A program made the translations under genes and the position numbers. The notes beneath the pieces are model-generated. The model did not search any database. It was given only the letters and a program-made list of their open reading frames with translations, and was not told the origin of the DNA. A DNA stretch of 55,510 nucleotides from a virus: the IMG/VR virus record IMGVR_UViG_3300035698_002871, positions 1 through 55,510 of that record. One strand, given 5' to 3'. Of this stretch, positions 12,001 through 52,363 are shown in pieces; positions within the stretch are counted from its first letter, which is position 1, and each line of letters opens with the position of its first letter.

Positions 12001-15000
12001 AACCCTCTTCCAAAGAAGAGTAATCATCTGTGAACGAGTATTGGAGAAAGTAGAAACAAACTCATTTCGTAGGTGTGTATTTTCATCTCTTAGTAATCGT
12101 AACCTAACAGCTTGTAAGGTAGCGTTGTGAGGATATGACACCTCAATATGTGTCATAAAGTCATCAAAGTTTGGATTGATATCCGCTAGGACTGTCATCA
12201 ATTCACCAAAGGTAGTATCTGCTGATACAGACTTATTAAATCCAAGGAAGTTCTTTTTAGGTATAATCTTCTGTGTCTGAGGATCGATTTCAAGATCTTC
12301 TATAGAGGTTAGAAACAGCTTCATATGAGCTGAAGCAGTATCTTTAACATCTATCTGCCATCTAGCAAGATCTGACCATCCTTGACGCTCATATAAAGAG
12401 ATGATTCCTTCATAACCAGGGAGATCGTTACTCTCTTCGTCTTCTACGCTATCAAGCTTTGATATAGTAGTATCAACTACTGTAGTCCAATCACCTTCTT
12501 CTCCTTCAATTGTATATCCAATACGTTCAATGTAATCTAAAGCTAACTGTACAAATCCTGTGTGCTCAATAGTTTCAAGATTATCACTGATTCCTTTTTG
12601 ATTCTCCCAGTTATTAATAACCTTATTAAAGAAGTGTAACTTTTCTTCTGCCAGTGCTTGTTTTTCAGTATCTGAGTAAGAAGCTAATTCTGATTCTGTT
12701 ACAAATCTCTTGAGTATCTTAATTGTAAATTCTGACTTAGGATCCACTTTAGCCTCTGCTATTCTTTTTAAGTTGTCTGCAATGACTTGCATCTGATCCT
12801 TAATAAGTGCAAAGGTAGTAGTAGGATGTATATTTCCTTTAATCATGTTAGCTAACCTTGCTAGCATGAAAGATATAACTTCAGATTGCTGATAAGATGT
12901 AAAAGGCTTTCCTCCTGTACGATCGTTAACAGTATATCCTGTCTCAATAGAGTTCAGTTCTTCTGCTTGTTCATCACTTAGTTCAATAGAATTCTTTAGT
13001 ACCTTATCAAGGTCCTCAGGTAAGTTATCATTTTTAGCTAGTGCTCCAAATATACCTTCAAAATCTTCAAATCCTGTGTCTTCCTTTGATGTATCTTCGT
13101 AATCATCATTTATAGGAGGAGTAGGAGTCTCTATAGTTTCTTTTCCTTGATCTAAGATCGTTATTACATCAATAGTTGTTACCGGTTGATCAAAGTATCC
13201 GTATTCAACTTCTCCCTTTGATTCAATTCTAGTTCCTTCAATGTCTGTTTCACCGTTAGTAGCAATGAAAGTGTTATAGTTTTCAAACGAGTTCGAAGTT
13301 ACTTTACCGTCTAAACTGATAAGAGGAAGGTTAAACTTAGCTTCAGAGTTTATTCTATCTATGTTAACATTTATATTTTTATTCTCTAGTATAACTTTTA
13401 CCTCTTCTAAATTATCTAACGTTACTTTTATCGGCGTACTTTTATGTCGTGCTATGTGTATACCATCCTTAGATATATTAAGGTGGGTAGGACGTCCTTT
13501 AATATCATCGTTATCTGCGTAGTCTCTGAATTGTTCTAATGTTCTAGAACTAACAAATGTGATTGAATTTAAGAAGTTTCTTAAACCAGACATAGTTGCA
13601 ATGTCTGACCCAGTTTCAAGTAATATTTTCTTAGATACCTTAGTGTTACTTTCTATATGAGCTTTCATAGCTCCTATAACTGTATCTAAAAGTTCACCTT
13701 TCATAGTTTCCTTTAATGTAGGAGGATAGAAAGGAACTGCAGCATACTCTCCATTAGGAGCAGGAATTACTATAAAGGGTACCCCATTTGGGAACTCCTT
13801 AACTGCAGTAATAAAATCTTTACCAAAATTGTCTTCAGCTATCGTATCCCTGTTAGCTTTATAGATTCCATTGTGACTTACAACAAATCCTAGTTTCTCC
13901 CAGTCTGGTACACGAGATGCTATCTTACCGTAGTCACTAGTTACATAGAGAGTACCAAATCCGCGACTCTCTATAGAAGAAGTAAACACAGCCTCTGGTC
14001 CCGCTGATAGAATAGTACTTCTCATCATACGTGCTAGTCTTGCTTGACCTTCTACGTTACCTGCAAAGTCTTCTATTACGTCAGCGACATTATCATATGA
14101 ATTCTCTGTCTCTCCATTGGGATGGGTTATTACTGAATGTGCCTCAATCCAACGAAGGTCATGGACATATCCTAAAAGATTATCTGCCTCATCATATATA
14201 CCAATCGGAACAGAATCTACAGAATCCTTTAGCTCTTCATAGGTCTCTCCATTTTCTGCATAGGATGTATCTATCCGTAAAGTTAAAGGAGTGCCTTTTT
14301 GGTACTTAGAATGGCTCTCAAATGGTAAGTATAGGTTAGGATTCTTATCAAGGTCTGTGGAGGTTTTCCATTCTCTATACATATTAGGAAGAATCTCTCT
14401 CTGTAATCTCTCATACTGACGTGATAAGTAAGCAATAGAAGATGCGGCTGGAACTAGCTTTACACCATCAAACATTACATTAGGAGCTCCTTGAGTCTTT
14501 GACTTAATGGATTCCTCAAAGTCTGCACCTGATTGATCAGATGTTTCTTCGTCCTCACTTGTATCAGTATTAATTTCTGTTACTACCTCTTCAGGAGTTG
14601 TTTCCTTTTCAGATTCTTCATCTGTTTGAATAGCTGCTTCTTCTAAGCGAGTAATCTTATCTTCATACTCATCATAAATAGCACTAATCTTTTTAATCAC
14701 TGTACGTAACTGTGCTTTTAAACTAGCGAGTAACTTACTATCAGTAGGATTAGGAGTAGTAGTGGTTTTCTTTTTTTGTTGTTGTTTTAGTTTATCAGCT
14801 TCCTCCTTAGATTTTTTAATCTCTGCTTTTAACTCATTTATATCTTCCTGAGAAGTCCCTTTAAATCTTCTACGTGCTCTTTTAAATGCTGCTAAAAGTC
14901 CTAATAATCCAAATTGTACATCACCAGGAACTGTAGGAGTACGATCATTATCAATTGGTGTACGAGCTTCAGGGATGATTAAAGCTCCGCCAGAATGTGG

Positions 15001-18000
15001 GTGTAGTATGTTATACCCTTTCCACTGGTCAGTTTCTAGTGTACCATCTTTTGCTGCAGGTTTTGCAGTGTAAGAGCCAGCATCGTAAACACCTATGGTT
15101 AAATTTTCAGATGTTATACCAAACTGTTTCATGATATTATTAGCCTCCTTCTGGAGGATGGTAAGAGATCCAGTTACATCTCTAACAATTGTATTTCCTT
15201 TAGTATCTTGAAATATAAATACAGCAGAAGCACCAGAGAATCTAGAGTATGCACTAGGACCTGAAGCAGTTGTTACAAAGTTTGCTACTGTTTTACCATC
15301 TACTGTCTTAATACCATGGGCACCTCTAATACCTATATTAGATTTTGCTTCCCAATCAAGTTCTGAGAATTTATATTGGTGTAGTCTTGTTATTGTTAGG
15401 TCCCATGGGGCTACCTCACTTGCTAATTTATACTTAGTAGTTACTCTATTTCCATTCCTAGTAAACACTGGTACGTAATCATCTAATGCAATATCTTTTC
15501 CAATTCTATTCTTTTGGAATGCTTGAGAGGCTACTTCTAATTCTTCATCTGATGTTTTATCAGTTAAGTCTACTCCATTATCATCTAGAATCATGAAGTG
15601 GGCTACTCCTTTAACCCCGGTTATTTTCTCATTTCCTGTGATTTTAGATTTAATACTACTTGTTACATATGTAAATCCTTGATCATTAAAGAATTGATTT
15701 CTAACCATTAAAAGGGAGTCTTGTACTCCTTTTCTAGCTTTATAATGAGAATCTTTTACTCTTCCAATCTCTTCAGTATATGTGTTTGACTTTTTATATT
15801 CTACTGAGTTATCTGATTCAACAATTACAGGGGCGGTTACAACTTTTGTTGTATCCACAATTACCTCGTTCTTTGTCATATCATATAACCCTACCTTAGC
15901 TAGGGCTCTAACAGCAGACTCAGCTGCGTAGTCGGGTATTATTTCCAGGGTGGTCTCAATGGTTTGGTTAAGATCTCCAGTGGCTACAACTGACACACCA
16001 GTTCCAAGTGTGCCTAAGACAGCGATAGCTAGTATAATCTTCTTGATAGCATTGACTATTCTAGTAACCATTGCTTTAAACTTAGAAGATCCTTCAGTCT
16101 TCTTATCAGGTGACTTAAGTTTCTCCTTTACAGCTTTCCCAATTTTTTTAGTTGCTTCGTCCGCACCTACTTCAAACTCATTAGCAATAGCTGTTAATTC
16201 TTCTTCAGTAGCTTCCTCTTCAATTTTCTTTTGAATAGCAGCCTCAAGATCTCTAGCTAGTTCTAATGCTTCTTCTTCAGCTTTCTTTTGGTCTTCTAGT
16301 ATCTTTTTTTCACTTTGTTCCTTAAGCTTGGCTACTTCTTCACGTTCAAGATTTCTTCTTTTTTGTTCCCTCTTCTCTTGTTCTACTTCAGTTTCTTTGT
16401 TTAACTGGTCTTCTAGTTCTTTAAGAAGCGTCTCTGCTTCAGCTAGCTCTTTCTCTTTTTTAGCTATCTTATCTTCAAGTGCTTGCTCTTGCTTAGTTTT
16501 AACAGTACTATTTTGTTGTGTTGATTTAGATTCAACCTCAGTCTTAGTTCCTTTACTTGCTTCTAGCTCCTTAATCTTTCTTTCTAGTTCTTTTCTTTTT
16601 TCAATTAGTGGTTTAAGCTTAGCATCTCTTTCTTTCTCTAGCTTTTCTTTATTTTTCTCATCGGAATTTTGCTCAGCCGCTTTGGACGCAGCTGCCCGTT
16701 GTGCCTCTTCTTTGGCCCTTTGTTTCTTTTTAGCTCTTGCTTCAGCTTTGGTAGATTTAACTGACTTCTTTTTCTTACTTCGCTTACTGTCATTCTTAGC
16801 TTTTTCTTTCTTTGTTTTAGCTTTTTTTACTTGGTTCTCTAGATCTTTCTGTGCACCTGCTATAAATTTGTTACGCTCTTCAGTTGAAGCTAGCTCTGCG
16901 TATGCTACATCCATCTCTTTAATGAGTTGTTGCAACATCTCTTTTTTAGTTTGCATACTAACAATTTCATTATTAGATTCTAAGATTCCTTTATATCCTT
17001 CTCGTAAAGAGTCTCCTGGAGATGTATCTTCAGGGTTGGCTTCTTTAAATTCCTTAGTAGCTTCTTCAATAGCCTTTAGATTCTTATCTCTTTTAGCTTT
17101 AGCAAATATCTCTCTCCCTTTTAGCACAGACTTAATATGGTCTCTAAGTACTAAAGGGTCTGTTTTAGAGTTCCTAGTTGTAGGGACTGGGGATCCAAAC
17201 TCTCTAATTGCTTTTAGCTTAGCTTGTGTGGTTCTTAAGTCAGCATTATCATACTCTACTCTTGCATCTTCAATCCACTTTAAAGTTTCTTCCACTGCAG
17301 CTACATCTTGGAAAGCTGTTAGTAAAGTATCATCAGTAGGTAATCCACGAGCAGCTGCTTCACGTTTAATCTCTTCTTGATAATCACTGATCATCTCATT
17401 AAGATTAAGAACTTCAGTTTCAAATGAACGAGTTTGTACTCTATTCATAAACAGTAAGTTACCGTAACCAGACTTTCTTACATCTTCATCACCTCTTACT
17501 TGGTCAGTTTGTATCCTATCAAATACTTTTGTTAGGTACTCTATATCTTTAATACTTTGTTTAGCTAATTTAGGATAATAATTAGGAGACTTAGGATCTA
17601 CATCTAATCCTTTACTACTAGCCTCTTCCTCAGTCATGTTCATAATTTCTTCGTACATACCTGTAAAAGAATCTTTATGACCACTAATAGCAGCATCGTA
17701 GATTCCTAGATTGAACAATGCTTTACTTGCACTTTCATATGCAACTACATCTCCTTTCTCTGATGCTTTAACTAATTCATTCTGTGCTTCCTCAAAAGCA
17801 AGTATCTTTTCAAGAATATAATCCTTATTACTCTGGAAGGATTCAGCACGTTTCTTAGCGTCTCCTTTAGTAGCTCCTAAGGAAGTAAGCATGACAGTTT
17901 GACCTATACCTCCTACAGCTCCAAGTACTGCACTTACTAGTGCCTCCTCGGTTCCCATAGATTGGAACATACGTTCTAAGAAAGTATCTGCTTCCATTCC

Positions 18001-19155
18001 AGTAATGTTACCTGTAGCTAGTCCTCCTTCATAGAGTCCCTCACGTTCAGCAACAACGTTATTAACCTCTTCCCAAGCTTCACGGAATGCCTCACGTTTA
18101 AGTATACCAGCGTATATAGCTTGATGGGATGGAGCTTGTACTCCTGGTTTAGATCCTTTACCTTGTAAATATGTCTTGTATTGATTTTTAGTCCAACCTT
18201 TTGTAGGCTTTAAAGCAGCTTGCGTTGCAGAATAGTAGAAATGATGACGAAACATTGGAAGAACTGAAGTCATATTCAATCCTGTATTCATAACAGTATT
18301 AAGACCAACAGTAGTTGCCGCTGCTGCAGAAGCCTCCTCTACAGTACCACCATCAAGTATTACTTGTTCATATACACGTGCGCCACTCATACCACCTTCG
18401 GTATAAGCTAACTGAGCAGATAGTACTAGACTCGAAGCCATATCAAGTCCCCTGGTAGTATTAATAAGTTTTGATAGTCCTTTGGCACCTTTCGCATATG
18501 CACCTCCAAGACCAGCTCCTGTAATACCAAATTCAGCGATAGATTCTACAAGACCCAATCCATTTTTAATCCACCAACCAGAGTCAGTGGCAAATACTTC
18601 GTTGGGTTCTTCTAGATATATAGGGTTAACCTCGTCAAGTTTCTTTCTCCATTTCTGAGCGAATTGTGTAAGAGCATTTGAATAGTCTCCTCCCTCTTGT
18701 GTAACTGTATTCCACTGGGCTTCAAAGTCCCCTAGATAACCTACATTCTCAATTAGTCCTAAACCTATAGCAGGTATAAGAGTAAGAGCTGCATTACCTA
18801 ATTGCTCACCAGTTCCTTGACGGATAGCTCGCATCTTCTGTAACGCTTCTTCACCACCTGTTGGCATGAAGACAGTTGTTAAATAGTCTTTGTAATTTTC
18901 TACAGATTCTCCTCCTTTAAATACAGTAGGACTATATGCTGGTATAGCATTAGCTTCATCTGAGTAACCTACCATATGTGTAGTTACCTCATCAGAAGGT
19001 CCTCCCATAGATGGTTGTGACTGAGGATTTTTATTACCTAGTACATCTGTATTAGTTGTATCTACAGATATAGGTTTTGTTGTTACTTCTACATTTGAGG
19101 GATCTACTGAGATAGATTTCGTAGTAACAGGCTTCTTAGCGCTTGGTTGATCCAT
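1..19155 (-). CDS. Giant virion protein with RNA-polymerase-like core and polyvalent domains (C-terminus outside window)
   Basis: One frame is open from ATG at 19155 to the left edge (6385 codons, no stop seen), so the protein is larger still. Visible in order: hydrophobic Ala/Gly-rich segments in the first 590 residues; a Lys/Glu coiled coil at about 590-990; a hydrophobic stretch near 1030-1060; an acidic linker near 1520-1550; an RNA-polymerase-like core with RQKMPGK (3259-3265), RIPTQGHSSM (from 3365) and the loop MGADFDFDKLY (Asp 3404, 3406, 3408), matching the DxDxD metal loop of crAss-like two-barrel RNA polymerases; a GNAT-like segment (YRNKGLGK, near 3600); a polyvalent-type segment (KKILFPTGETAAK, near 3970); zincin motif HEYAH (4158-4162); zincin motif HEALH (5099-5103); and a GDN...GTGGQA..R domain of unknown function (about 5325-5450). 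It follows two cargo-like genes with a 10-base gap. Family knowledge says such proteins are packaged and injected to transcribe early genes; that role is inferred here. Confidence 0.85.
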   Translation of the reverse strand, partial: MDQPSAKKPVTTKSISVDPSNVEVTTKPISVDTTNTDVLGNKNPQSQPSMGGPSDEVTTHMVGYSDEANAIPAYSPTVFKGGESVENYKDYLTTVFMPTGGEEALQKMRAIRQGTGEQLGNAALTLIPAIGLGLIENVGYLGDFEAQWNTVTQEGGDYSNALTQFAQKWRKKLDEVNPIYLEEPNEVFATDSGWWIKNGLGLVESIAEFGITGAGLGGAYAKGAKGLSKLINTTRGLDMASSLVLSAQLAYTEGGMSGARVYEQVILDGGTVEEASAAAATTVGLNTVMNTGLNMTSVLPMFRHHFYYSATQAALKPTKGWTKNQYKTYLQGKGSKPGVQAPSHQAIYAGILKREAFREAWEEVNNVVAEREGLYEGGLATGNITGMEADTFLERMFQSMGTEEALVSAVLGAVGGIGQTVMLTSLGATKGDAKKRAESFQSNKDYILEKILAFEEAQNELVKASEKGDVVAYESASKALFNLGIYDAAISGHKDSFTGMYEEIMNMTEEEASSKGLDVDPKSPNYYPKLAKQSIKDIEYLTKVFDRIQTDQVRGDEDVRKSGYGNLLFMNRVQTRSFETEVLNLNEMISDYQEEIKREAAARGLPTDDTLLTAFQDVAAVEETLKWIEDARVEYDNADLRTTQAKLKAIREFGSPVPTTRNSKTDPLVLRDHIKSVLKGREIFAKAKRDKNLKAIEEATKEFKEANPEDTSPGDSLREGYKGILESNNEIVSMQTKKEMLQQLIKEMDVAYAELASTEERNKFIAGAQKDLENQVKKAKTKKEKAKNDSKRSKKKKSVKSTKAEARAKKKQRAKEEAQRAAASKAAEQNSDEKNKEKLEKERDAKLKPLIEKRKELERKIKELEASKGTKTEVESKSTQQNSTVKTKQEQALEDKIAKKEKELAEAETLLKELEDQLNKETEVEQEKREQKRRNLEREEVAKLKEQSEKKILEDQKKAEEEALELARDLEAAIQKKIEEEATEEELTAIANEFEVGADEATKKIGKAVKEKLKSPDKKTEGSSKFKAMVTRIVNAIKKIILAIAVLGTLGTGVSVVATGDLNQTIETTLEIIPDYAAESAVRALAKVGLYDMTKNEVIVDTTKVVTAPVIVESDNSVEYKKSNTYTEEIGRVKDSHYKARKGVQDSLLMVRNQFFNDQGFTYVTSSIKSKITGNEKITGVKGVAHFMILDDNGVDLTDKTSDEELEVASQAFQKNRIGKDIALDDYVPVFTRNGNRVTTKYKLASEVAPWDLTITRLHQYKFSELDWEAKSNIGIRGAHGIKTVDGKTVANFVTTASGPSAYSRFSGASAVFIFQDTKGNTIVRDVTGSLTILQKEANNIMKQFGITSENLTIGVYDAGSYTAKPAAKDGTLETDQWKGYNILHPHSGGALIIPEARTPIDNDRTPTVPGDVQFGLLGLLAAFKRARRRFKGTSQEDINELKAEIKKSKEEADKLKQQQKKKTTTTPNPTDSKLLASLKAQLRTVIKKISAIYDEYEDKITRLEEAAIQTDEESEKETTPEEVVTEINTDTSEDEETSDQSGADFEESIKSKTQGAPNVMFDGVKLVPAASSIAYLSRQYERLQREILPNMYREWKTSTDLDKNPNLYLPFESHSKYQKGTPLTLRIDTSYAENGETYEELKDSVDSVPIGIYDEADNLLGYVHDLRWIEAHSVITHPNGETENSYDNVADVIEDFAGNVEGQARLARMMRSTILSAGPEAVFTSSIESRGFGTLYVTSDYGKIASRVPDWEKLGFVVSHNGIYKANRDTIAEDNFGKDFITAVKEFPNGVPFIVIPAPNGEYAAVPFYPPTLKETMKGELLDTVIGAMKAHIESNTKVSKKILLETGSDIATMSGLRNFLNSITFVSSRTLEQFRDYADNDDIKGRPTHLNISKDGIHIARHKSTPIKVTLDNLEEVKVILENKNINVNIDRINSEAKFNLPLISLDGKVTSNSFENYNTFIATNGETDIEGTRIESKGEVEYGYFDQPVTTIDVITILDQGKETIETPTPPINDDYEDTSKEDTGFEDFEGIFGALAKNDNLPEDLDKVLKNSIELSDEQAEELNSIETGYTVNDRTGGKPFTSYQQSEVISFMLARLANMIKGNIHPTTTFALIKDQMQVIADNLKRIAEAKVDPKSEFTIKILKRFVTESELASYSDTEKQALAEEKLHFFNKVINNWENQKGISDNLETIEHTGFVQLALDYIERIGYTIEGEEGDWTTVVDTTISKLDSVEDEESNDLPGYEGIISLYERQGWSDLARWQIDVKDTASAHMKLFLTSIEDLEIDPQTQKIIPKKNFLGFNKSVSADTTFGELMTVLADINPNFDDFMTHIEVSYPHNATLQAVRLRLLRDENTHLRNEFVSTFSNTRSQMITLLWKRVRRSDDSYAYVMTPINTNRNAIHQRIKDQWLENQKTSPITKENDKGELVIDKEEAAKYVADIKKLGKLAAKNPKGDAFNELISGTHEALKSIGIFLSEDALINISKTSKKRFNSTFDYLYKNGVFHTIGQHLIGMKKSDRDNPNDLELLVNNPLLNESSVTTLARIESGFTTSVYSHSHSTGEGKTVFSYIKPSYLSHKVRELKTKGHVILDNLSSISYSKDSRYLRQLKESTKFREEGFNIFYADTIKKDGSKANEGITRTNMSDIDMETWVVSLLQNRGMVYSDSQSEGKRYVMNVPWLTISDKTATPILKTVKENINFNVKALQKKNKLELGKNGKSMILEMVQAEAKRITNYQSIEEGNKNKSKEEKEALKKQHIDFYDDGGAEHFFFFPFLNEMDELWTMEGEKKILTMTVEDLKNVVLPRVQQHFYDVALETVQRWVSMGLLDPESPTSSPVLDSSYVKTIPTEYKDKNDPTLLWMYAALDVELNTTFAYSEMSRLISGDPALAWKGDSVITSLIQYQKRLAKDIAPGADGNWAKGSLVNYVFVDDNIVKAEHLKEYIKILGGAFRYDEINTTDAQELTTVSEHIKVLWAYGKISKAVYDQVESKIAEASEKKKAPVFNSDELSFILQPMKPVYVGDVFDTTRDVRRIHYIKSSSIPLVPQLVENSELQEVMEEMHNHNIDRLAFKSASKIGTINSQVIFSEGTLKSDLDFSTPIILPRDGFRIQQDMPYDPLKSKIVTMSQVNKLLFEGILDMKDFELPGFNEKMTGKKLKEHKEDLRKQMMELGKIELMERLGAEETTEGNYRFKDLNLIRKILVEEAILREYPVNDLRSLELTKDGTGFIIPLAYNNSVKVIESMLMSLIDSTIIRQKMPGKSYVQAAAGAGFKGKNSLNQLSKRDKEAITYIEGFDFKKGLQFIHSADGKTKAAQVLLPSYFHNEDGTLVKTEEFTKIVNGKKVVDKDKLPDSMRRAIAARIPTQGHSSMLPIEVVGFLPTYMGDLVIAPNGITNQMGADFDFDKLYFYFYNHKVIDGKIFNYNDKREILNHIIETSQKDNTTADLTTKLQELFGDRVGFTMTNNPVWEKGDNVLNQKDYDNRVDYNLKAVSILSSDKAKQVFAKGKKNNWDLNKILTELQIPKEQKQIILDKYKDKVSEQEFIKDFSIKPNNENHPEDANTYDIVYKNNKIGVVALLEGKNKTIKGVKLEEKYRNKGLGKQLYKYLNHLANKNEGVLTSDPEQQSESARRLWNSLIKEGLVSKAKADEQVLKFNTSNLREEIITSLLAENSFVVEVNTAMETSFEVKNQRGVNQDEDGVLLDDSPFSYDIEEESAPTQKYANLAAPGGTNYTVKTIQTPAILNQSMAHTNDFSSGVPNMLGWIRTDEKTIGGEIETINTEVLDDVTFDDEGRPEPTLSVLTSQKTTGGELTKTLRVQEIQSPLFQYGRKSKDLTASSYTTPKKGDKVILRHVEGHMVTGTVDSYSPETEAEFLPDENQWEPDFPASIKLKDEPIIFLDGYQIDVITSEEQLDKENNLKKFSASRNQFLQLLNKDGNWVNFFIQSLVQDSIKKGYKKILFPTGETAAKIQGHETIASEIKNIDARIISVKKGSLRFDKTDKGIQKEISMNKNRDFGLQNIEDILFAMRPSDNRVKEFESKGYITNVRIDIDTKQLSELEAKKQRMKTEGLEKLKPIEAFYANKVTDILNKLYSIKEITDEHSNTWNEIDISSPKVLQEILLQKDEADKIIGQANIDAGTVLIDALNKKEDTIPHEYAHHYIAWFRETAIVKEAIKKWGSEEALVQAIGEEAVARKGEAYSWWKKFSDFVANLFSSLDESTKEELVQALTSAFLTDSNLKAIEEAYKKDRKGKTKGMKDLQNDYIDVHWSVLTHPKMLKRILQPVDQDNLSNAIKKIENVKKTVKKASDTYYTRRGQQQSFISNRYGKSGVSIMSLASTFNASAQDKDLFLRQPDEPIDSVRKIDIEIAPGEFLSLSDLSGNGYHLFKNEDKTSSEISKQMVISDIQSAAVDNANDQKLDKVNLNDITFGAAIAMSILQSPDTNKKYGKTLGIEYITNLLVQPILLDYVQEYSNQEASVIANTGGLPQDRATDIIKERWTQKIKDSNGEVTVLRNDTATFSTNILLAKLGTDNSTIQELNDQLAIFELFKKFEEVGNSLLQVQIAINSDTKGAGKDLFHASDKSDKVEKFVKHNKLIANTSNLLGYKDQKEKFQYSTELGKAYEHGPKLAQELYKSLLPEYTDVDRARIFKEIENHIAREKLTPILKRQIFDQLKAYLYSSIEAGITYNSKADRKRLLLGKNSLAHRVHKAKTAKATKDNILLKRIRTDINPLTKEASTIHFEGTSAIQLDDAENVQAFTDLLVNKDTRDLATDLIKYLYLTGARQRANNFMRYIPFDWIKISGLAETIRGFNKMDMAEYAFKFIRQYIQHNPDLVYSVPDKFVGLDLMGRPLIDNTALYFTMPPINGDLSPELDNLVQDAGLVNMHFPKYLRARDTKNNEWVLYEETEAMPGGGIYVRIPTLGNKSIEEFQPKSTKAKSLYVKNNPSKIQQTYIDKLVKELEEEYGVEPVIAPDHAILPEQTPIVIPNPDGGSLTLKQRYGINKTGNISNALPNMLNKIAETSLNPSYRALAAIINSSLHRFPYKGKLTIETGSDTEIGHVTPSFVKNRIDMGFHEDLFDTNMYTTTEADAIILHEALHASTVMLLVAYQVQNNVGMGAEFRAKNKGKVDNLNTAVLTKEEKEYAKELFAVHKILLKELEKKFGKDTITNFINLRKELFTSKGDVKESRDRIFDEMSLIAGSPENFNFLYHATSIEEFAVALPTDKKIQEFANNIKFTSKKTLWDRIKDIYNKFIKALAESIGLKVKPGSALEAGLHAILGLTEQTTFILRTEPLTEAEKATSLPQTSEVEVVARYSNSDVKTNPDKIYVFGDNIRRTGTGGQAQIRNNENAFGIATKLKPSNSADAFMSDNDLQSNKDVINSDIVKIKEDGRSLVFPKDGFGTGLAKLKQKAPQTYAYLKQRLQEEFGFNNDTGIVDKNSNQEGQLDMFEYRVGAPRKKGTNRLDTFLIETIARIDARTKSLKQASSKLNANTSNFQQEIERLGIERHKLIQDKNVTDITDLAKKSLDWVINILDNPQITDTELKQAKMTIELWADIRKVLYPSDAEQPTASMEEVLKELEELSNSLTDRAAKINLKFISGEINKNLIQQTTPKSLQKLKDIGVGRKYFLDASETKVPLLSFVAKTLKDAKRDASYRAEEASKEIEKQREKLKASPAYQKHGFDLMFQKDENGEWTGDRVDRLSQLWYKDRYNLQRRIHNSNKGTVDYYKEITKYKKWLKGNNIIVDSRILYGEESTQEEKDEHIKMLKEKVGDEQAKIMLANADRQWKNFLDHLEGTITREEAKVIEIVNYSQDDADKALEYEMDTKSPINLLDELYSGLASSTLGVNNYHKIIMHPDPNSDANKKYFDKQYAEIEKDEVYSKFFDWFTETMADHIEKIPPHLRMENQVHTNFLPKVQNELVQRMLDSNFEGAWSEASSKFLEGISAVDIKEAPLTGVGGQEVKDIPFPYLKLPTKQTMVIDPQTGQKVLTSYQDRATQTTDVLRALEIFGHAAYNFEHLNRIEDTVLLAQRVVYEAEEIQVDSSGNTLYDKLRNKIYTKDGELTNLKDSVSYTIDAMLYGDRQRDEIYTNKEVIIDKEVKEEKERLTKLLEELQIAYASDEISTPKYIVENKRLTEELDAIITRKVTVSGLGGILMNFTQMKGMAYNPFSATANLGFGLMGNMIHANGREDFTTGEALTAFRLMLNNVGKLGGITTDTALMITAMVNKFDLLFEVNEAAYAGSKRNKGVSKISRVTRNIGVYEFQTRSEFFIQGMSLVAMMLHHKVKDITGKERKLLEAFDKDGEWKVEEFGENTEWSGNIADKSQMKEFRKFRNRAIQVNKKIHGNYDPNSPIVMKSYILGRFLLQFRSWMPEGLAS

Positions 19156-41769: not shown

Positions 41770-43230
41770 TTATCCTTTAACTGCAGTGCAAATTAATTCA
41801 CCACAAGCCATTGGGTTTTTAATCATAATACCACATTCAGTAAGCATGTGTACTGCAAATCCGTCCTCGTTGTTAGAACGCATTGTGCTCACGCTGTCTG
41901 CTGTGTTACCGAAAGGATCGATAGAACCGGCTGTATGCCACATAACATTTTCAGAGTCTTTCTTATAGACCTTCTGAATGTTAGACTCTCCACCATGTAC
42001 GCCAAAATCCAAGATAGTGAACCTATAAGATTCAATCGGACGGTTAGTTTTATAGTGAAGTTGACGGTTAGATACAGTATCATCATAAAGCGGTAAGTGC
42101 TTCAAAGTAATACGTGTACCATTCAAACCTTCGTAAGTCTTAAACTGACCTCCTAAAGATAGAGACTGACCAGAGCCAGTAACAAACTTAGAGTCTACCA
42201 GTGTATATTGAGCTGCTGCATTCTTCATCGCATTGTCAAACTCGGCAAAACCAAATTCTCCTGTGAAGCAAACAAAGTCTCTTGACGCTTCAGGTGCGAT
42301 GTTATATGACAAGTCAATCATAAACTCACGGATGATACTTTCTGTTAATTCTGTGTAGTAACGCTTATGCGCTGGAGCAATTTGCTCACGAATACCTGCA
42401 CCTTCAAAGACTGGAAGTTGGTTGTTACCAAGCATGTTAGTCTGACCCTGGGCATTAGAAGAGTAAGTAGAATACCACAATGAGCGTTCCATCTCTTTAT
42501 ACCATTGTGCCATAGCTTCCCACTCAGCATAACGTAACCATAATTCAGTATCTTTTTCAGATTTAGGATCTTTCAACTTAATGATCATTACATCAGTTGC
42601 AGCTGAACGAGAGATAGTGTAACTCTTACGAAGTGTCGTAAGGTGATTACGCATCTTGAACGGAGAGCTGAAGTGAGTCTGTCCACCAATTGAAAGTTCT
42701 GGTACTGTGGTGTACTCTTTAGAAAGTTCACGTCCAGCTTCTACAAGAGAAGGATCAATGAAAGAAGTTTCATCTGGATTAGTAGAACGAAGTTCAAGGA
42801 TATACCCATCACCATCAAAAAGAGGATCACTCATAACACGTACACGATAATCACGATCATCAAGTACAAGTACTTCTTGAGCTGCGAACCATTTCTCTGC
42901 AACCTTCACACGGAACGTAGTTCCATTAAGTCCAGGAGTTACACCGCCGTCTCCGAAGTTTCCTATAATTGTAATTGCTTTTTCATCGTCGCCTTGTAGC
43001 ATCCATTCGTACTCGCGATTGCCTACTTCCATTTTACGTCCCATACCATCGGTAAGATACATCATTGGAAAAAGGCCTGCGCTACCCCAGATGCGGGCTA
43101 CAACTGAACTGATAAGTTCTGGTTGCGTTAAATACATAGAACTAAGGTGACCTTGGACAGTAAGTCCAGCATGCCATTTAGTTTTATATAGTTGTAGGTT
43201 GTTTAGACCTAAATTAGCTATTGCTGCCAT
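41770..43230 (-). CDS. Major capsid protein
   Basis: 486 residues, the typical length for crAss-like HK97-fold capsid proteins. It starts MAAIANLGLNNLQLYKTKWH and has features recalled from that family: an early GHLSSMYLTQPELIS helix, MKNAAAQYTLVDSK, and a C-terminal region ending in MLTECGIMIKNPMACGE. It follows the scaffold-like gene by 24 A/T-rich bases with no Shine-Dalgarno sequence. Gene order (TerL, portal, scaffold-like, MCP) supports the call strongly. Confidence 0.85.
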   Translation of the reverse strand: MAAIANLGLNNLQLYKTKWHAGLTVQGHLSSMYLTQPELISSVVARIWGSAGLFPMMYLTDGMGRKMEVGNREYEWMLQGDDEKAITIIGNFGDGGVTPGLNGTTFRVKVAEKWFAAQEVLVLDDRDYRVRVMSDPLFDGDGYILELRSTNPDETSFIDPSLVEAGRELSKEYTTVPELSIGGQTHFSSPFKMRNHLTTLRKSYTISRSAATDVMIIKLKDPKSEKDTELWLRYAEWEAMAQWYKEMERSLWYSTYSSNAQGQTNMLGNNQLPVFEGAGIREQIAPAHKRYYTELTESIIREFMIDLSYNIAPEASRDFVCFTGEFGFAEFDNAMKNAAAQYTLVDSKFVTGSGQSLSLGGQFKTYEGLNGTRITLKHLPLYDDTVSNRQLHYKTNRPIESYRFTILDFGVHGGESNIQKVYKKDSENVMWHTAGSIDPFGNTADSVSTMRSNNEDGFAVHMLTECGIMIKNPMACGELICTAVKG

Positions 43231-44474: not shown

Positions 44475-46859
44475 TTATTTGGAAGGGCGGGGAGTTGGTT
44501 TATTAGCTACTTTACGCTTAATTGCTAACTCTTGGTTCTTTAAACCTAAATCTTGTGTTAGTTTTTTACGTTGTAACTCTAAAGCACTTTTCTTAAGTTT
44601 AGTATCATCATTCGCTTTCTTCTTATCTAGTTCTAGTTTAGCTCTAGCAATTGGATCTTCTCCTTCTTCTCCTTGTTCTTCAGGTACATTTCCTGATTGT
44701 TTAAGAAGTTCAAGTTCAATCTTGTTCTGACGATCTAACTTATTTTCATTATTATCATTGTCTATCTTCATCTTCTCCCAATCTTGCATTTGTTTCTGGA
44801 GGGCTTGGGCTTGTTCACCTTGTTGCTTCTGCATAGATTGTTCGTATTCTTTACGATTCTCTTCTGCAGTTACAAGAGAATTTTTGATTGTAGACATATT
44901 ATCTGATACCATTATAGTAGCAACCTCAGCTGCAGAGATCTTATCATTCTGTAACATCGCTTGTGCTAAGCCTCTCATGGTTTCAATTGCTCTTGTATCT
45001 TTAGTAGTATTACTTACAAAGATTCCGTACTCACATGTAGCGAACTCACCAGGGTCTAGGTTAAGCATGGTGCGGCCTATGTCGTCGGATACAAAATTTA
45101 TCTTCTTTCCGTCTTTCCATGCGATACGAGATGCATCGATTAGGGCTTCTAGAACTTGCTTCTTACATTCGTTATGTTTGTGGAACCAATACTCAGTGAT
45201 ATGAGCAGACTGTTGGATACTACGTTCTACGTTTCCTACAAGTTCAGATGCCATTGATTGGCCTTCACGTTGTCTTGATACTCCTACTAGTCTTCCTAGA
45301 TTATCTTCCAAGTTACTTATAAGGTCAATATAGAAATTGATCTGTGACCCAGTGGTCATATCCACAGATGTGAATTGATTGAAAGCTGAACGTTCTCCAT
45401 CCTGTCCTTCTTCAAATGAGTTGATAAATGCAATACCCATGGCGTCTAAGTAGTACATCCACTTGTCAAGGTCCCAGCCTTTAGAAAGAGGAATTTGTGC
45501 TAGATCGACAACCATTGGTTTACCCTTGTCTTTTGCCATGAGGTTCTCCACTCTAAAGTATGCGATATCTATGAGGTACTGGGTAGTCTTCATTCTCTCT
45601 ACTATAGAGACTGATTCAGAATTCATAGCATTGTAGATCTTTCCTACGTAAGAACTCTTACATTTAGAAGGGTTATCCATCGATCTACGTTGGTTCTCTT
45701 TTGCTTGTATCCTTACATAGATGTCATCGTGTATCTTAGTAGTAGTCCAGTATTCTTTAATCCAATGTATCTCTGCTTCATAATCATCGAATCTCCATAC
45801 TCCCTTATCTTTCACAGCGTACTCTGGTAGTTCAAAAGTCTCGTCTGCTAGTTCAGTAATCTTTCGCCCTGTTTGTTCATCAGTAGTTGTAATAAAGAAC
45901 ACCTTACGGAAAGAAGCCCATTCATATATGGTTACACTGATTAATCCATTACGATTCTCTGGTTTTGTATATCTTGATTCAGAGGAGTACTCTGCAGCAG
46001 ATCTGATTAGAACTTTCATTCCATCATACATTCCTGGCCCATCCGAACCAAATCCTGAACCTGTACTATTTAGATCTTCTAATTTTTTTATTTGTGTGTC
46101 TGTCAGTTCCGAGTGGAACTCATCGATTATAGATGCTAGAGTTAGATGTCTTTCTTCTATGATAGCTGATGCTTCGTCGACATTATCTATGTCAGGATCT
46201 AGTACTACTGTGATATCCAGTGGGTTAGCTACTCTTATGACTGGTTGCCCTTCTATAATACCAACCCAGTACAGTTCTTCTCCTGCTATTAAAGCATGCT
46301 TAAACCCTTCATTGAACTTTTCTACTATGCGTTGTTCCTGCATTAAATAGTTTACAGCTTGCTGTCCATTACGTTCTCTTATATCTTGGTAGCTATAACG
46401 AACATACTTCTGCATTTCTTTAAGTCCATCTTCATCTTTAGTTCCTAACATGTACTCACGTAAAGATCCCATAATTAGTTTCTGTTGCTCTCTTTCTAAT
46501 GAAGATGTAGCATCAGGGTTAGTTGAGATAACTCTAAAGTTAAAGGGGCGATTAATCTCTTCTCCTAATAATAGAGATATTTTAGGACTGATGAAATCAT
46601 AGTGTTTTAAATCTGCAGGTAACTCTTCTTCTTTAAACCCGTAGGGGTTAGTTACATACTCAAAGTCGGCTCTATTTAAGATACCATTGAATAAGTTATA
46701 ACAAATTGCTTTATTCTCTTTGGATCCTCTACCGTTAAAGTTACTACTTTCGGTTAAACCGTCTAGTTCATTACAAACTTCTTTAGCCCAAGTCTTTGTC
46801 TTTCTGGTCTTAGGCAGCTTTTGTCGGGGTCCGTCTATCTTTCCTGTAATCTGTTTCAT
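44475..46859 (-). CDS. Portal protein
   Basis: 794 residues. An early LFNGILNRADFEYVTNPYG motif and IRVANPLDITVVLDPDIDN, with a long helical body, are typical of large crAss-like portal proteins. The last 120 residues are Gln/Lys-rich coiled coil (QKQQGEQAQALQKQMQDW), fitting a barrel extension into the capsid. It lies 57 bases after TerL with its own promoter. Forms the dodecameric vertex through which DNA is packaged and ejected. Confidence 0.85.
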   Translation of the reverse strand: MKQITGKIDGPRQKLPKTRKTKTWAKEVCNELDGLTESSNFNGRGSKENKAICYNLFNGILNRADFEYVTNPYGFKEEELPADLKHYDFISPKISLLLGEEINRPFNFRVISTNPDATSSLEREQQKLIMGSLREYMLGTKDEDGLKEMQKYVRYSYQDIRERNGQQAVNYLMQEQRIVEKFNEGFKHALIAGEELYWVGIIEGQPVIRVANPLDITVVLDPDIDNVDEASAIIEERHLTLASIIDEFHSELTDTQIKKLEDLNSTGSGFGSDGPGMYDGMKVLIRSAAEYSSESRYTKPENRNGLISVTIYEWASFRKVFFITTTDEQTGRKITELADETFELPEYAVKDKGVWRFDDYEAEIHWIKEYWTTTKIHDDIYVRIQAKENQRRSMDNPSKCKSSYVGKIYNAMNSESVSIVERMKTTQYLIDIAYFRVENLMAKDKGKPMVVDLAQIPLSKGWDLDKWMYYLDAMGIAFINSFEEGQDGERSAFNQFTSVDMTTGSQINFYIDLISNLEDNLGRLVGVSRQREGQSMASELVGNVERSIQQSAHITEYWFHKHNECKKQVLEALIDASRIAWKDGKKINFVSDDIGRTMLNLDPGEFATCEYGIFVSNTTKDTRAIETMRGLAQAMLQNDKISAAEVATIMVSDNMSTIKNSLVTAEENRKEYEQSMQKQQGEQAQALQKQMQDWEKMKIDNDNNENKLDRQNKIELELLKQSGNVPEEQGEEGEDPIARAKLELDKKKANDDTKLKKSALELQRKKLTQDLGLKNQELAIKRKVANKPTPRPSK

Positions 46860-46916: not shown

Positions 46917-49040
46917 TTACCGTCTATTCTTCTTAAATAGCTTCCTATTAGAACTTAATAAGCCTGTATTGAATATATCGTCCCTAGTATTAGCTACTGA
47001 TTTTGCAGTTATCTCTTGTCTTTCTTTCATGTATAATGCAACTAGAATCATAGCTATCGCTCTGTCATAGTTACCATCTTTAGGGTCATACGCAATAAGC
47101 TCTTGCAGTAAAGGTATAGAACGAATAGTATGTAAATTAAGTATAGGGGTACCATCTTCATTCTGTCCTCGTTCTTCTAGTAACCAATCTCTTAAATACA
47201 TTTCACCATCACGTTTAATCGCTTCTGGCATGTGTATACCAAATCCCCTGTGTACTTTAGAATTCTTAATACTCTTCTCTATAATTCCCGGCTGTTCTGC
47301 AAGAATGTACAGACATTTCTTAGCTCTAAAATAAGTCATCATACCTTTAAGCTGGTTCTCATACAGAGTCTTAGCACCATAGTATATCAATAACTTACGT
47401 ACATTCTCATAATATTCTTCTGCCATCCTAGGACGTCCAGTATACTCTGCTACTACTATGTTGTAGGTTTGATCAAAGCTTTGGAATGTCTTATAAATAA
47501 TAGTAGAACCCAGTGACATCGTTGTAGAATCATCTTGGTCATAAGGGTCAGTTCCTGCTATATATAGTCCAGGTGGGGTCTTGTTATTAAAATCCTTATA
47601 AGGGTGTTCCCATATAACAATAGCTCCTGTATTATCTTCATTGTGTTCGTGAGGGAACTTTTCTATAGGTTTAATCCTAGTAGGTGAGAATTTAAGTCCT
47701 TCATTTCCCCATACTAATTCTCCTGATGAGTATACTCTAAGATCCTTATCAGTTTCAAGTCTACCTAGCTGCTCGTTAAGTTCAGCTGTTGGAAACTTAT
47801 TACCTGACGTACGAAGGAAAGCTTCCCTTGGAGTCTTTGGATACTGAGTAATAAACTTCTCCCATGATACCTGACTACCACCTGCATCACGTTTAGCCTT
47901 ACGTTCAAGGTCCAGATAGATTTCAGCAAACTTCCTATTGGAGTTTCCATCCTCATCTACCATTTGTACTGCCACTTGTGGTTCATCCTTATATTGGTCT
48001 AGATCCTCTAGCCCCCTATAAAGTTCTGGCATGTAGTGTATTGACTTAGGTACAATGATTTCACCTGGCTTGTACCACATGTCATCAATAAATAGTCCAC
48101 ACTGCGTTCCTCTTCTACCCTCATCCCATATATTATCAAATGGTCTTAGGTTATAACGAATAGGGTTATCAAACATAGCAGCAAAATCTGCTGTGCCTCC
48201 TTCCATGTCTCCACCAGTTCCAAATATAATAGGCATTCCAATCATATTGGCACCATCCATAAAGGTTGGTTGAGTTACTCCCCACGTTTCCAATAGGTTA
48301 GGCCACTTACCAGCTTCCTCAAATAAGAAGAGACTTGCTTTCTTTCCAATCGCATTAGAGAAGTTATCCTTAAAAGTAAGACTATATACTTGAGAGTTAG
48401 TTCCTCTCCATATCTTAGTACCATCTTCCTTAGTAACTTGCCATCTAGCTTCTATGAAGTCATGACGATCTGGATCACGTCTCTTCCGGAATGCTGTATG
48501 CTCGTTAACAAAGTTGAGCATTGTAAGAGTCATGTCCATGGTAAGCTTAGCCAATACTTTTAAGTAAGCTCCTATGATACTTGTACTTGCTCTTTCAAAC
48601 GTATACATGTGTGCACATAACGCAGCGTTCTTATAGGAGAATCCTTTACGTCTAGACTTCGCTACAATCATACCCTGGTTATTATTCCAAGCATTTTCTA
48701 TCTCTTGGAAGTAATAGAAGTCCATATCTAAGAACCTAGGAAACATCAAACGAGTTGTGTTTCTTCCATTGACTTCCGTTGTAGCTTTAATCTGTGTAAA
48801 GTTCAAATAGAAGTAGTGGCGTCCTGTTATATGAACGCCAGCAACTATATGTCCTTCTGTGCATCTCCTACGTTGCTCATCCCAGTACTCCTTGTATGTT
48901 ATAGTACCTTCTGGTGCATTAGTATAGTATCCGTACTTAAGGAAGTTTAAAGCCTCCCTAGAGTACTCTCTAGTATTCATAAAAGTTGGAAGTATCTGAA
49001 GCCTATTTAGCTCCAGCCTCTTACTTACTATCTGTGCCAT
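46917..49040 (-). CDS. terL: Terminase large subunit
   Basis: 707 residues. ATPase motifs: a Walker-A-like AKSRRKGFSYK at 127-137 and Walker B LFLFEEAG at about 237-244. C-terminal RNase H-like nuclease half begins with YIAGTDPYDQDD and ends near YDRAIAMILVALY. This is the DNA-packaging motor and headful nuclease. Length and motif spacing fit crAss-like terminases. It overlaps the 97-residue gene by 20 bases. The small subunit is not obvious; the 175-residue coiled-coil protein upstream is one candidate. Confidence 0.92.
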   Translation of the reverse strand: MAQIVSKRLELNRLQILPTFMNTREYSREALNFLKYGYYTNAPEGTITYKEYWDEQRRRCTEGHIVAGVHITGRHYFYLNFTQIKATTEVNGRNTTRLMFPRFLDMDFYYFQEIENAWNNNQGMIVAKSRRKGFSYKNAALCAHMYTFERASTSIIGAYLKVLAKLTMDMTLTMLNFVNEHTAFRKRRDPDRHDFIEARWQVTKEDGTKIWRGTNSQVYSLTFKDNFSNAIGKKASLFLFEEAGKWPNLLETWGVTQPTFMDGANMIGMPIIFGTGGDMEGGTADFAAMFDNPIRYNLRPFDNIWDEGRRGTQCGLFIDDMWYKPGEIIVPKSIHYMPELYRGLEDLDQYKDEPQVAVQMVDEDGNSNRKFAEIYLDLERKAKRDAGGSQVSWEKFITQYPKTPREAFLRTSGNKFPTAELNEQLGRLETDKDLRVYSSGELVWGNEGLKFSPTRIKPIEKFPHEHNEDNTGAIVIWEHPYKDFNNKTPPGLYIAGTDPYDQDDSTTMSLGSTIIYKTFQSFDQTYNIVVAEYTGRPRMAEEYYENVRKLLIYYGAKTLYENQLKGMMTYFRAKKCLYILAEQPGIIEKSIKNSKVHRGFGIHMPEAIKRDGEMYLRDWLLEERGQNEDGTPILNLHTIRSIPLLQELIAYDPKDGNYDRAIAMILVALYMKERQEITAKSVANTRDDIFNTGLLSSNRKLFKKNRR

Positions 49041-51238: not shown

Positions 51239-51548
51239 GTTTAAATCCTATCTTTGAATCGCTTGGAGTTTCCAATAATAATTGCTTCAACCTTTCATAG
51301 TCCATCATTATTACACGGGATTGCCCATTATATGTAACTAGTGACCTCTTACTATATTTACGTCCTTTATCAGTATAAGCAGGTTCTACTTCTGTAATTC
51401 CGTCAATGTCTCTACAAAACCAGGGTGTCTTGAAGTTTTCCTTAACAAGCTCTAGGTCTTGGTACTTTTCACCTGTCTCTGCGTCTTCCGTGAGTACTTC
51501 CTTATAAAGGTCTCGTACTACTATGAACTCAATCTCTTTTCCTTCCAT
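51198..51548 (-). CDS. Hypothetical conserved phage protein
   Basis: Start set at ATG 51548 (MEGKEIEFIVVRDLYKEV), since the frame upstream opens only from TTG. 116 residues, beta-rich, with a basic segment (KGRKYSKRSLVTYNGQ) and an ERLKQLLLETPSDSK helix. It overlaps the HU/IHF-like gene by 20 bases and the following gene by 41. No family recognised; its neighbours are DNA-packaging or virion-related. Confidence 0.45.
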   Translation of the reverse strand: MEGKEIEFIVVRDLYKEVLTEDAETGEKYQDLELVKENFKTPWFCRDIDGITEVEPAYTDKGRKYSKRSLVTYNGQSRVIMMDYERLKQLLLETPSDSKIGFKHGITHTQRSRTRS

Positions 51549-51729
51549 TGACCATCGCTTTAGGTGCAAATACTCCTAATTTGTGCAGTCTTACTGCTAT
51601 TCCTGCGGATAGGCATTCTTTAACGTATTTAAACTGATGACGAACCATCCTGTCTACTACATGAGACGGTAGCCCATATTCTTTTGCTATTGCGTCTATT
51701 ATCTCTGGTGGTAGCTGGTTGGTCGCCAT
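51529..51729 (-). CDS. Short HU/IHF-like DNA-binding protein
   Basis: 66 residues: PPEIIDAIAKEYGLPSHVVD, then a long helix and GIAVRLHKLGVFAPK. The two N-terminal helices followed by 'xVxLxxLGxFxxx' match the HU/IHF fold, but the protein ends where the DNA-wrapping beta arms would begin. crAss-like phages are known to encode IHF-like proteins. It could bend packaging-site DNA or act as a dimerising partner. It begins 11 bases after the 3' CCA end of the tRNA, so tRNA processing would leave almost no leader. Confidence 0.55.
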   Translation of the reverse strand: MATNQLPPEIIDAIAKEYGLPSHVVDRMVRHQFKYVKECLSAGIAVRLHKLGVFAPKAMVNGRKRD

Positions 51730-51740
51730 GTCAGTTTAGT

Positions 51741-51815
51741 TGGTTGCGGGAGTAGGAATCGAACCTACGATCTTCGGGCAATGACCCCGACGAGTTACCA
51801 TTTCTCCGTCCCGCG
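51741..51815 (-). tRNA. Initiator tRNA-fMet (anticodon CAU), CCA encoded
   Basis: 75 bases with encoded CCA. The anticodon is CAU. Three initiator hallmarks are all present: an unpaired C1 opposite A72 at the top of the acceptor stem (CGCGGGA versus TCCCGCA), an A11-U24 pair in the D stem (GAG/CTC), and three consecutive G-C pairs at the base of the anticodon stem (TCGGG/CCCGA). T arm GTAGG/CCTAC with loop TTCGATT. It is very close to the bacterial initiator tRNA consensus, with a D loop two bases shorter. It sits five bases after the dockerin-like gene stop and 11 bases before the HU/IHF-like start, inside one transcription unit. Confidence 0.92.
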
Positions 51816-51820
51816 TTATA

Positions 51821-52363
51821 TTATTGTCCGTATCCTGCTAAGAATAAAGTTAAGTCTCCTGTATTGATAGTACCATCATTATTCAGGTCCCATTCCATGT
51901 GTGCATACTCAGTATACTCATCTACATCTGGATAGAAGTCTTCAAACACTCCCCATTGGGATGGTGCATCAGGATTGAATTCACATGTTGGTACATCATT
52001 ATAATCTAAGTATGCCCACATATCTCTAGTAAAGGTTACTCCAGTAGGTTTGTGTGTAGCTGTCATAGTCATCATTACCACGCCATCACACTCTGGTTTA
52101 AGATCTTTAAGCTGTGGTTCAGGTAATGTAGTCATTAGTTCACCATTCACATACCATTCCCATTCAAAGTCAGGATATACCAGTTCATGTTCTCCTGGAG
52201 GAAACATTCTAACTCCATTAAGGAGAGTTAGGTTACCTAGCTTAGAACCACCTCCAGATATATCTTGGTAATAGTTATTGAACGCTGGGAATACCCTGGG
52301 TGCGTCTTGGACACTTCTACCGTAGTAGGCTAAAAAGTCTAATAAGTCTGCTGTATTATACAT
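51821..52363 (-). CDS. Dockerin-like calcium-binding protein
   Basis: 180 residues. The C-terminus (WDLNNDGTINTGDLTLFLAG) is a canonical dockerin-type EF loop: Asp159, Asn161, Asp163 and Asp170 occupy calcium positions 1, 3, 5 and 12, followed by the dockerin helix LTLFLAGYG. The very N-terminus (NTADLLDFLAYYG) repeats the helical half of the same unit without its loop. In between is a beta domain (about 30-155) with VYPDFEWEWYVNGEL. There is no signal peptide. In-frame TAG lies just before the ATG, so the N-terminus is correct. It overlaps the GroES-like gene by 8 bases. The two half-repeats may pair within one chain. Confidence 0.65.
   Translation of the reverse strand: MYNTADLLDFLAYYGRSVQDAPRVFPAFNNYYQDISGGGSKLGNLTLLNGVRMFPPGEHELVYPDFEWEWYVNGELMTTLPEPQLKDLKPECDGVVMMTMTATHKPTGVTFTRDMWAYLDYNDVPTCEFNPDAPSQWGVFEDFYPDVDEYTEYAHMEWDLNNDGTINTGDLTLFLAGYGQ

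What the first reader, a model, noticed from the sequence alone, without database searches (positions are those of the whole stretch)
51741..51815. Phage-encoded initiator tRNA with all three initiator hallmarks
CAU anticodon, C1-A72 mismatch, A11-U24 and three G-C pairs at the foot of the anticodon stem are seen together, with CCA encoded. Phage tRNAs usually serve elongation; an initiator is uncommon. It could raise initiation capacity during infection or resist host tRNA-cleaving defences.
Basis: seen in the sequence. Interest (0 to 1): 0.78.

Follow-up and report, generated by a model that had tools for sequence, protein, structure and literature searches.

The report
crAss-like phage initiator tRNA with U37
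This bacterial virus carries its own copy of the tRNA that starts protein synthesis, and the base next to the anticodon (position 37), an A in every bacterial initiator checked here, has become a U, a change that keeps recurring in unrelated phages and may let the virus keep starting proteins when the host's own starter tRNA is attacked.

Summary
Window 51741-51815 (minus strand) is a real tRNA (ARAGORN; Rfam 47.1 bits) with every initiator hallmark named: CAU, C1·A72 mismatch, A11-U24, three G-C pairs at 29-31/39-41, encoded CCA. An initiator covariance model scores it 77.5 bits against 53.9 for an elongator-Met/Ile2 model. The virus is crAss-like; in near-full-length relatives this is the only tRNA, and it lies upstream of, and co-directed with, terminase.

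In Bacteroidota genomes the same pattern gives A37 in 156/248 genomes and U37 in one, on a phage contig. Across viral contigs, U37 (and less often G37 or C37) initiators occur in many phages sharing no detected proteins.

Best reading: a phage initiator for late-gene translation, altered at 37 to escape a host factor that reads the anticodon loop (VapC-like nucleases cleave tRNAfMet there). The escape step is inferred. A rival, U37 pairing with A(-1) of the message, was tested and fails outside this clade. A new variant of a known kind.

The parts
51741..51815 (-). initiator-type tRNA-Met(CAU), 75 nt, CCA encoded
   Evidence: ARAGORN; Rfam RF00005; initiator CM 77.5 bits vs elongator/Ile2 CM 53.9 bits
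51781..51783 (-). anticodon CAU (positions 34-36)
   Evidence: ARAGORN anticodon position 33; sequence
51780..51780 (-). U37, in place of the A37 of bacterial initiators
   Evidence: sequence; 18/18 relatives U37; Bacteroidota A37 156/248 vs U37 1/248
51815..51815 (-). C1, unpaired with A72 at 51745
   Evidence: sequence; hallmark table
51529..51729 (-). HU-like DNA-binding protein gene directly downstream of the tRNA
   Evidence: Pfam PF00216 E 2.2e-6; phrog_379
51821..52363 (-). gene of unknown function directly upstream; its stop lies 5 nt before the tRNA
   Evidence: ORF list; no PHROG/Pfam match
46917..49040 (-). terminase large subunit, same strand, 2.7 kb downstream of the tRNA
   Evidence: phrog_6681 E 1.1e-139
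44475..46859 (-). portal protein
   Evidence: phrog_6547 E 6.2e-135
41770..43230 (-). crAss-like major head protein
   Evidence: phrog_11589 E 8.2e-115; tblastn to crAss-like phages about 42% identity

Best explanation
Shown: a structurally intact initiator tRNA gene of a crAss-like phage, lying in the terminase/structural gene block and conserved in its relatives, with A37 replaced by U. Inferred: it is transcribed with the block, charged with Met and formylated by host enzymes (C1-A72 mismatch, A11-U24), and enters the ribosomal P site with the help of the conserved 30-40 G-C pair, so that phage late genes can be started when host initiator is short. Inferred, least certain: the change at 37 is kept because a host factor that recognises the initiator anticodon loop, most plausibly a VapC-type or other anticodon nuclease, no longer acts on it. 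Rough confidences: initiator identity 0.95; functions in initiation 0.8; change at 37 serves escape 0.4.
For: Initiator identity. Selection on the structure: compensatory changes in all four helices. The middle anticodon-stem pair 30-40 is G-C in 17/17 while 31-39 drifts to U-G. The 86-89 kb relatives G257, G260 and G261 hold this tRNA and no other, so codon supplementation by a tRNA set is not the reason for it. U37 is 18/18 in terminase-anchored relatives, against 1.8% U37 in other viral tRNAs. Cells keep A37: 156/248 Bacteroidota genomes with A37, one with U37, no true G37/C37 tRNA in 118. Only 9 real U37 initiator-type tRNAs came from the 84,980-genome collection; for two Alistipes, a Tannerella, a Mycobacterium and a planctomycete MAG the same genome also has an A37 copy, and the Alistipes and Tannerella U37 copies match phage contigs with head genes. 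Recurrence: 65 held contigs with a U37 CAU tRNA form 25 protein-sharing clusters; G37/C37 in 22 further contigs; two tRNAs differ only at base 37, U vs G (L484/L612). Literature: VapC toxins of several bacteria cleave tRNAfMet between anticodon stem and loop (PMC8522696); phage tRNAs carry anticodon-loop changes read as nuclease escape (PMC10264068).
Against: No host, expression, charging or cleavage data. It is not shown that any nuclease reads base 37 of the initiator. PIN-domain proteins were not found in the two Alistipes and one Tannerella MAGs holding U37 copies, although these are MAGs and may not be the true hosts. Many phage initiators keep A37, as do crAss-like Buchavirus and Bohxovirus. 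PMC10264068 reports that phages of enteric bacteria generally avoid encoding tRNA-fMet when VapC targets it.
Confidence: 0.45

Rival explanations
1. Extended codon-anticodon pairing: U37 pairs with A at -1 of phage messages, so the tRNA favours phage start sites (A-AUG) over host ones (U-AUG, matching host A37).
For: In the window A:T at -1 is 15:4 for genes not overlapping the previous stop. crAss-like genomes with U37 have higher A/(A+T) at -1, relative to their own background, than A37/no-tRNA gut crAss-like genomes (Mann-Whitney p 0.003).
Against: Clade members without a detected tRNA can be as A-rich (G264 0.70, G287 0.78). Two crAss-like U37 genomes are not (G288 0.34, G289 0.50). Unrelated U37 phages show the opposite trend against A37 phages (p 0.019). 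G37 and C37 forms also exist. Phylogeny is confounded with the tRNA, and gene starts were called with a simple script.
Confidence: 0.12
2. Extra supply only: the phage adds a copy of the rate-limiting initiator for late protein synthesis, and base 37 drifted because phage copies are under weak constraint there.
For: Many phage initiators are ordinary A37 copies; G37 and C37 also occur; position 37 is not among the recognised critical initiator features (general knowledge).
Against: U37 is fixed in 18/18 of a diverged clade while neighbouring stem positions turn over; the simple transition to G is less frequent than U by contigs (19 G, 3 C, 44 U); other viral tRNAs are U37 in 1.8%.
Confidence: 0.3
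3. It is an elongator-Met or Ile2 (lysidine) tRNA that resembles an initiator.
For: Two relatives (L021, L022) have U11-A24 like elongators.
Against: Window 77.5 vs 53.9 bits, and every clade tRNA scored is higher under the initiator model; 1-72 mismatch and A11-U24 in the window.
Confidence: 0.03
4. It is an attachment-site copy of a host tRNA left by integration, without function for the phage.
For: Full-length tRNA genes can mark attachment sites (general knowledge).
Against: It sits inside a tight operon upstream of terminase (2.7 kb here, about 1-8 kb in relatives), co-directed, carries a U37 that cellular initiators lack, and has its own compensatory changes. No integrase was found in the flanking genes tested.
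Confidence: 0.03

Closest known systems
Bacterial initiator tRNA (tRNA-fMet, E. coli metZ/metY type)
   Same: CAU, unpaired 1-72, A11-U24, G-C pairs low in the anticodon stem, 7-nt loop, CCA
   Different: U37 with G32/G38 in place of C32/A37/A38; A13-A22 mismatch; carried by a phage late-gene block
Initiator tRNA next to terminase in Buchavirus cr60_1 (Crassvirales, Suoliviridae)
   Same: initiator-type CAU tRNA on the terminase strand, about 150 nt upstream of terminase
   Different: A37; sits beside a CUA suppressor-type tRNA in a TAG-recoded genome
Shigella phage Sf14 tRNA-Met with loop CTCATTA (PMC12482277)
   Same: A-to-T at loop position 6, i.e. base 37, reported against host CTCATAA
   Different: the paper says neither Sf14 tRNA-Met is classified as fMet and does not interpret the change; the Ounavirinae phage phiEa21-4 tRNA scores as initiator here (78.6 vs 55.5 bits) but has A1-U72
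Nuclease-insensitive phage tRNAs (van den Berg et al. 2023, PMC10264068)
   Same: idea of loop changes near nuclease cleavage sites in phage tRNAs
   Different: that work concerns mycobacteriophage and enterobacterial phage tRNAs and reports tRNA-fMet as avoided; base 37 of initiators is not discussed in its main text

Membership tests
bacterial initiator tRNA (tRNA-fMet) | CAU anticodon in a cloverleaf tRNA | tested here: met
bacterial initiator tRNA (tRNA-fMet) | no Watson-Crick pair at 1-72 | tested here: met
   C1-A72 mismatch
bacterial initiator tRNA (tRNA-fMet) | A11-U24 in the D stem | tested here: met
   15 of 17 clade members
bacterial initiator tRNA (tRNA-fMet) | three G-C pairs 29-31/39-41 | tested here: met
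   met in the window; in relatives only 30-40 is invariant
bacterial initiator tRNA (tRNA-fMet) | scores above elongator/Ile2 CAU tRNAs under a trained model | tested here: met
   77.5 vs 53.9 bits
bacterial initiator tRNA (tRNA-fMet) | A37 (usual, not strictly defining) | tested here: not met
   U37
bacterial initiator tRNA (tRNA-fMet) | formylation and P-site initiation in vivo | not testable with these tools
   needs RNA and protein work
elongator Met / Ile2 (CAU) | paired 1-72 and Y11-R24 | tested here: not met
   C1-A72 mismatch, A11-U24
nuclease-escaping phage tRNA | anticodon-loop change relative to the host's targeted tRNA | tested here: inconclusive
   changed against all Bacteroidota initiators seen, but the host is unknown
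nuclease-escaping phage tRNA | insensitivity to a host anticodon nuclease | not testable with these tools
   no nuclease identified; PIN search inconclusive
Crassvirales phage | crAss-like MCP, portal and TerL | tested here: met

The most novel reading that the evidence does not exclude
Base 37 of initiator tRNA is a contact point in an arms race: host anti-phage factors recognise the invariant A37 of tRNA-fMet, and many unrelated phages, including a crAss-like clade whose only tRNA is this one, have independently replaced it (mostly with U, also G and C) so as to run translation initiation on a private, resistant initiator.
Probability: 0.33. Interest if true: 0.8.

Novelty: new variant of a known kind. 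Interest (0 to 1): 0.6.

Why it matters
Initiator tRNA is a single essential gate for all protein synthesis and a known target of toxins. A phage clade that keeps only this one tRNA, altered at a base that the bacterial genomes checked do not change, turns the old question of why phages carry tRNAs into a one-nucleotide test (A37 vs U37). The recurrence in unrelated phages gives a way to look for unknown host factors that read the initiator anticodon loop, and offers a natural initiator variant for studies of translation initiation.

Tried and rejected
1) Recoded genome: the first 19 kb lack long plus-strand ORFs because of one minus-strand ORF of at least 6385 aa; codes 4 and 15 add nothing. 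2) Elongator Met or Ile2: rejected by two competing models. 3) Chance fold: energy alone is uninformative (z -0.98); covariation decides. 4) U37:A(-1) pairing: promising in the clade, fails in unrelated U37 phages. 5) U37 as a host trait: rejected for Bacteroidota and, for five of eight genomes holding a U37 copy, by a co-resident A37 gene. For two Dehalococcoidia genomes and one Sedimentisphaerales genome only U37 was seen; the Sedimentisphaerales neighbours look viral or plasmid-like, the Dehalococcoidia neighbours match nothing, so these stay open. 6) VapC as the named culprit: PIN matches absent from three Bacteroidota MAGs, so not claimed. 7) Papers on crAss-like initiator tRNAs: none found in the held library.

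Full report
WHAT IS THERE. The minus strand of 51741-51815 is a tRNA-Met(CAU) by ARAGORN and Rfam (47.1 bits), the only tRNA in the window. It fills most of the gap between the stop of an upstream gene (51821) and the start of an HU-like gene (51729), all on the minus strand. Downstream on the same strand lie terminase, portal and major head genes of crAss-like type. The window is a viral record of 55,510 bp.

INITIATOR IDENTITY. C1-A72 mismatch, A11-U24, GGG/CCC at 29-31/39-41 and encoded CCA are all present. I built one covariance model from 25 initiator-type and one from 22 elongator/Ile2-type CAU tRNAs of viral contigs. The window tRNA scores 77.5 bits with the first and 53.9 with the second; every clade tRNA scored also prefers the initiator model.

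THE PART NOT NOTICED. The anticodon loop is G U C A U U G: base 37 is U. In terminase-anchored relatives, 18 of 18 loci with a CAU tRNA have U37 (16 distinct sequences). Seventeen aligned tRNAs show compensatory change in every helix (97.6% of cells paired, 12 pairs with double changes, covariation score 0.473 against 0.140 in shuffles), and the 30-40 pair is G-C in all. So the tRNA has been kept while diverging, and U37 has been kept with it. Three relatives with near-full-length records have exactly one tRNA, this one (G257, G260, G261); two others of 81-89 kb have none (G262, G263). Most relatives do not encode the full CCA.

CELLS DO NOT DO THIS. The same initiator pattern finds A37 in 156 of 248 Bacteroidota genomes, U37 in one, and no true G37/C37 tRNA in 118. 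In the 84,980-genome collection the U37 pattern gives 75 hits, of which 9 are real tRNAs by ARAGORN. Of eight genomes followed up, five also carry an ordinary A37 initiator. The Alistipes and Tannerella U37 copies match phage contigs with head genes. The Dehalococcoidia cases (L238, L243, L272) remain undecided: no A37 copy was seen in the two genomes searched and their neighbours match nothing.

IT RECURS IN PHAGES. Sixty-five held contigs carry a U37 CAU tRNA; grouped by shared proteins they form 25 clusters (short contigs may inflate this). Lineages with distinct terminase or head genes include the crAss-like clade, phrog_29-head phages (L072, L232), phrog_38-terminase/SPP1-portal phages (L076, L077), phrog_2-terminase phages (L074, L082), and Alistipes phages with a head protease (L066); also Ounavirinae phiEa21-4 and the T4-like ZPAH1. 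In whole-collection scans with one pattern, real tRNAs with U37 were in 44 contigs, G37 in 19 and C37 in 3. One pair of tRNAs differs only at base 37 (U vs G; L484/L612). Many other phage initiators keep A37, including crAss-like Buchavirus, where the tRNA also sits next to terminase, and the Loutivirinae sampled (4 A37, 1 G37). U37 in other viral tRNAs is 1.8%.

MECHANISM. Initiator function is inferred from structure. Why 37 changes is open. Escape from an initiator-specific anticodon nuclease is favoured because VapC toxins of several bacteria cleave tRNAfMet between anticodon stem and loop (PMC8522696) and because loop changes in phage tRNAs have been linked to nuclease insensitivity (PMC10264068). 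Against it: no nuclease known to read A37 of the initiator was found in the papers read, and three Bacteroidota MAGs lack PIN matches. Pairing of U37 with A(-1) was tested with start contexts: the clade leans that way (window A:T 15:4; crAss-like groups p 0.003), but unrelated U37 phages lean the other way (p 0.019), so it is at most a clade trait. Weak constraint at 37 cannot be excluded but does not explain fixation of U in the clade.

WHAT IS KNOWN. Phage initiator tRNAs as such are annotated in public records. An A37-to-U change in a phage tRNA-Met was tabulated for Sf14 without interpretation and said not to be fMet (PMC12482277). I found no report in the held library of U37 as a recurrent feature of phage initiators. 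The library is open-access only, so this is not proof of priority.

LIMITS.

Noticed in passing
window 1-19155, minus strand: One open frame of at least 6385 aa that runs off the window, followed by 801, 785 and 1375 aa frames; a giant virion-type gene as in other crAss-like phages (cr60_1 has a 13.5 kb one).
   Followed up: partly
window, gene starts on the minus strand: Strong A at -1 before ATG (A:T 15:4 in non-overlapping genes) and many 1-nt stop/start overlaps, whereas gut crAss-like genomes prefer T at -1.
   Followed up: yes
L484/L491 and L612: Initiator tRNAs identical except base 37 (U versus G), in records from different sources.
   Followed up: no
L059 / EU710883.1 22490-22564 and 22744-22817: The Ounavirinae phage phiEa21-4 has two CAU tRNAs with U37; the first scores as initiator (78.6 vs 55.5 bits), so the Sf14-type tRNA-Met may be an initiator missed by annotation.
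   Followed up: partly
L343, L345, L378, L394, L395: In Loutivirinae crAss-like phages an initiator-like CAU tRNA with A37 (or G37 in L395) lies next to a CUA suppressor-type tRNA upstream of terminase; cr60_1 reads TAG as sense.
   Followed up: partly
L238, L243, L272 (Dehalococcoidia genomes): U37 initiators among large ORFs without Pfam or PHROG match; phage contigs or a true host trait, undecided.
   Followed up: partly
L133, L175: Initiators with loop GTCATCG (C37), an analogue of the window's GTCATTG loop; L072/L084 share GTCATTG itself.
   Followed up: no
L006 5910-6680: A crAss-like relative where the U37 initiator heads a cluster of five further tRNAs (Gln, Thr, His, Phe, Arg).
   Followed up: no
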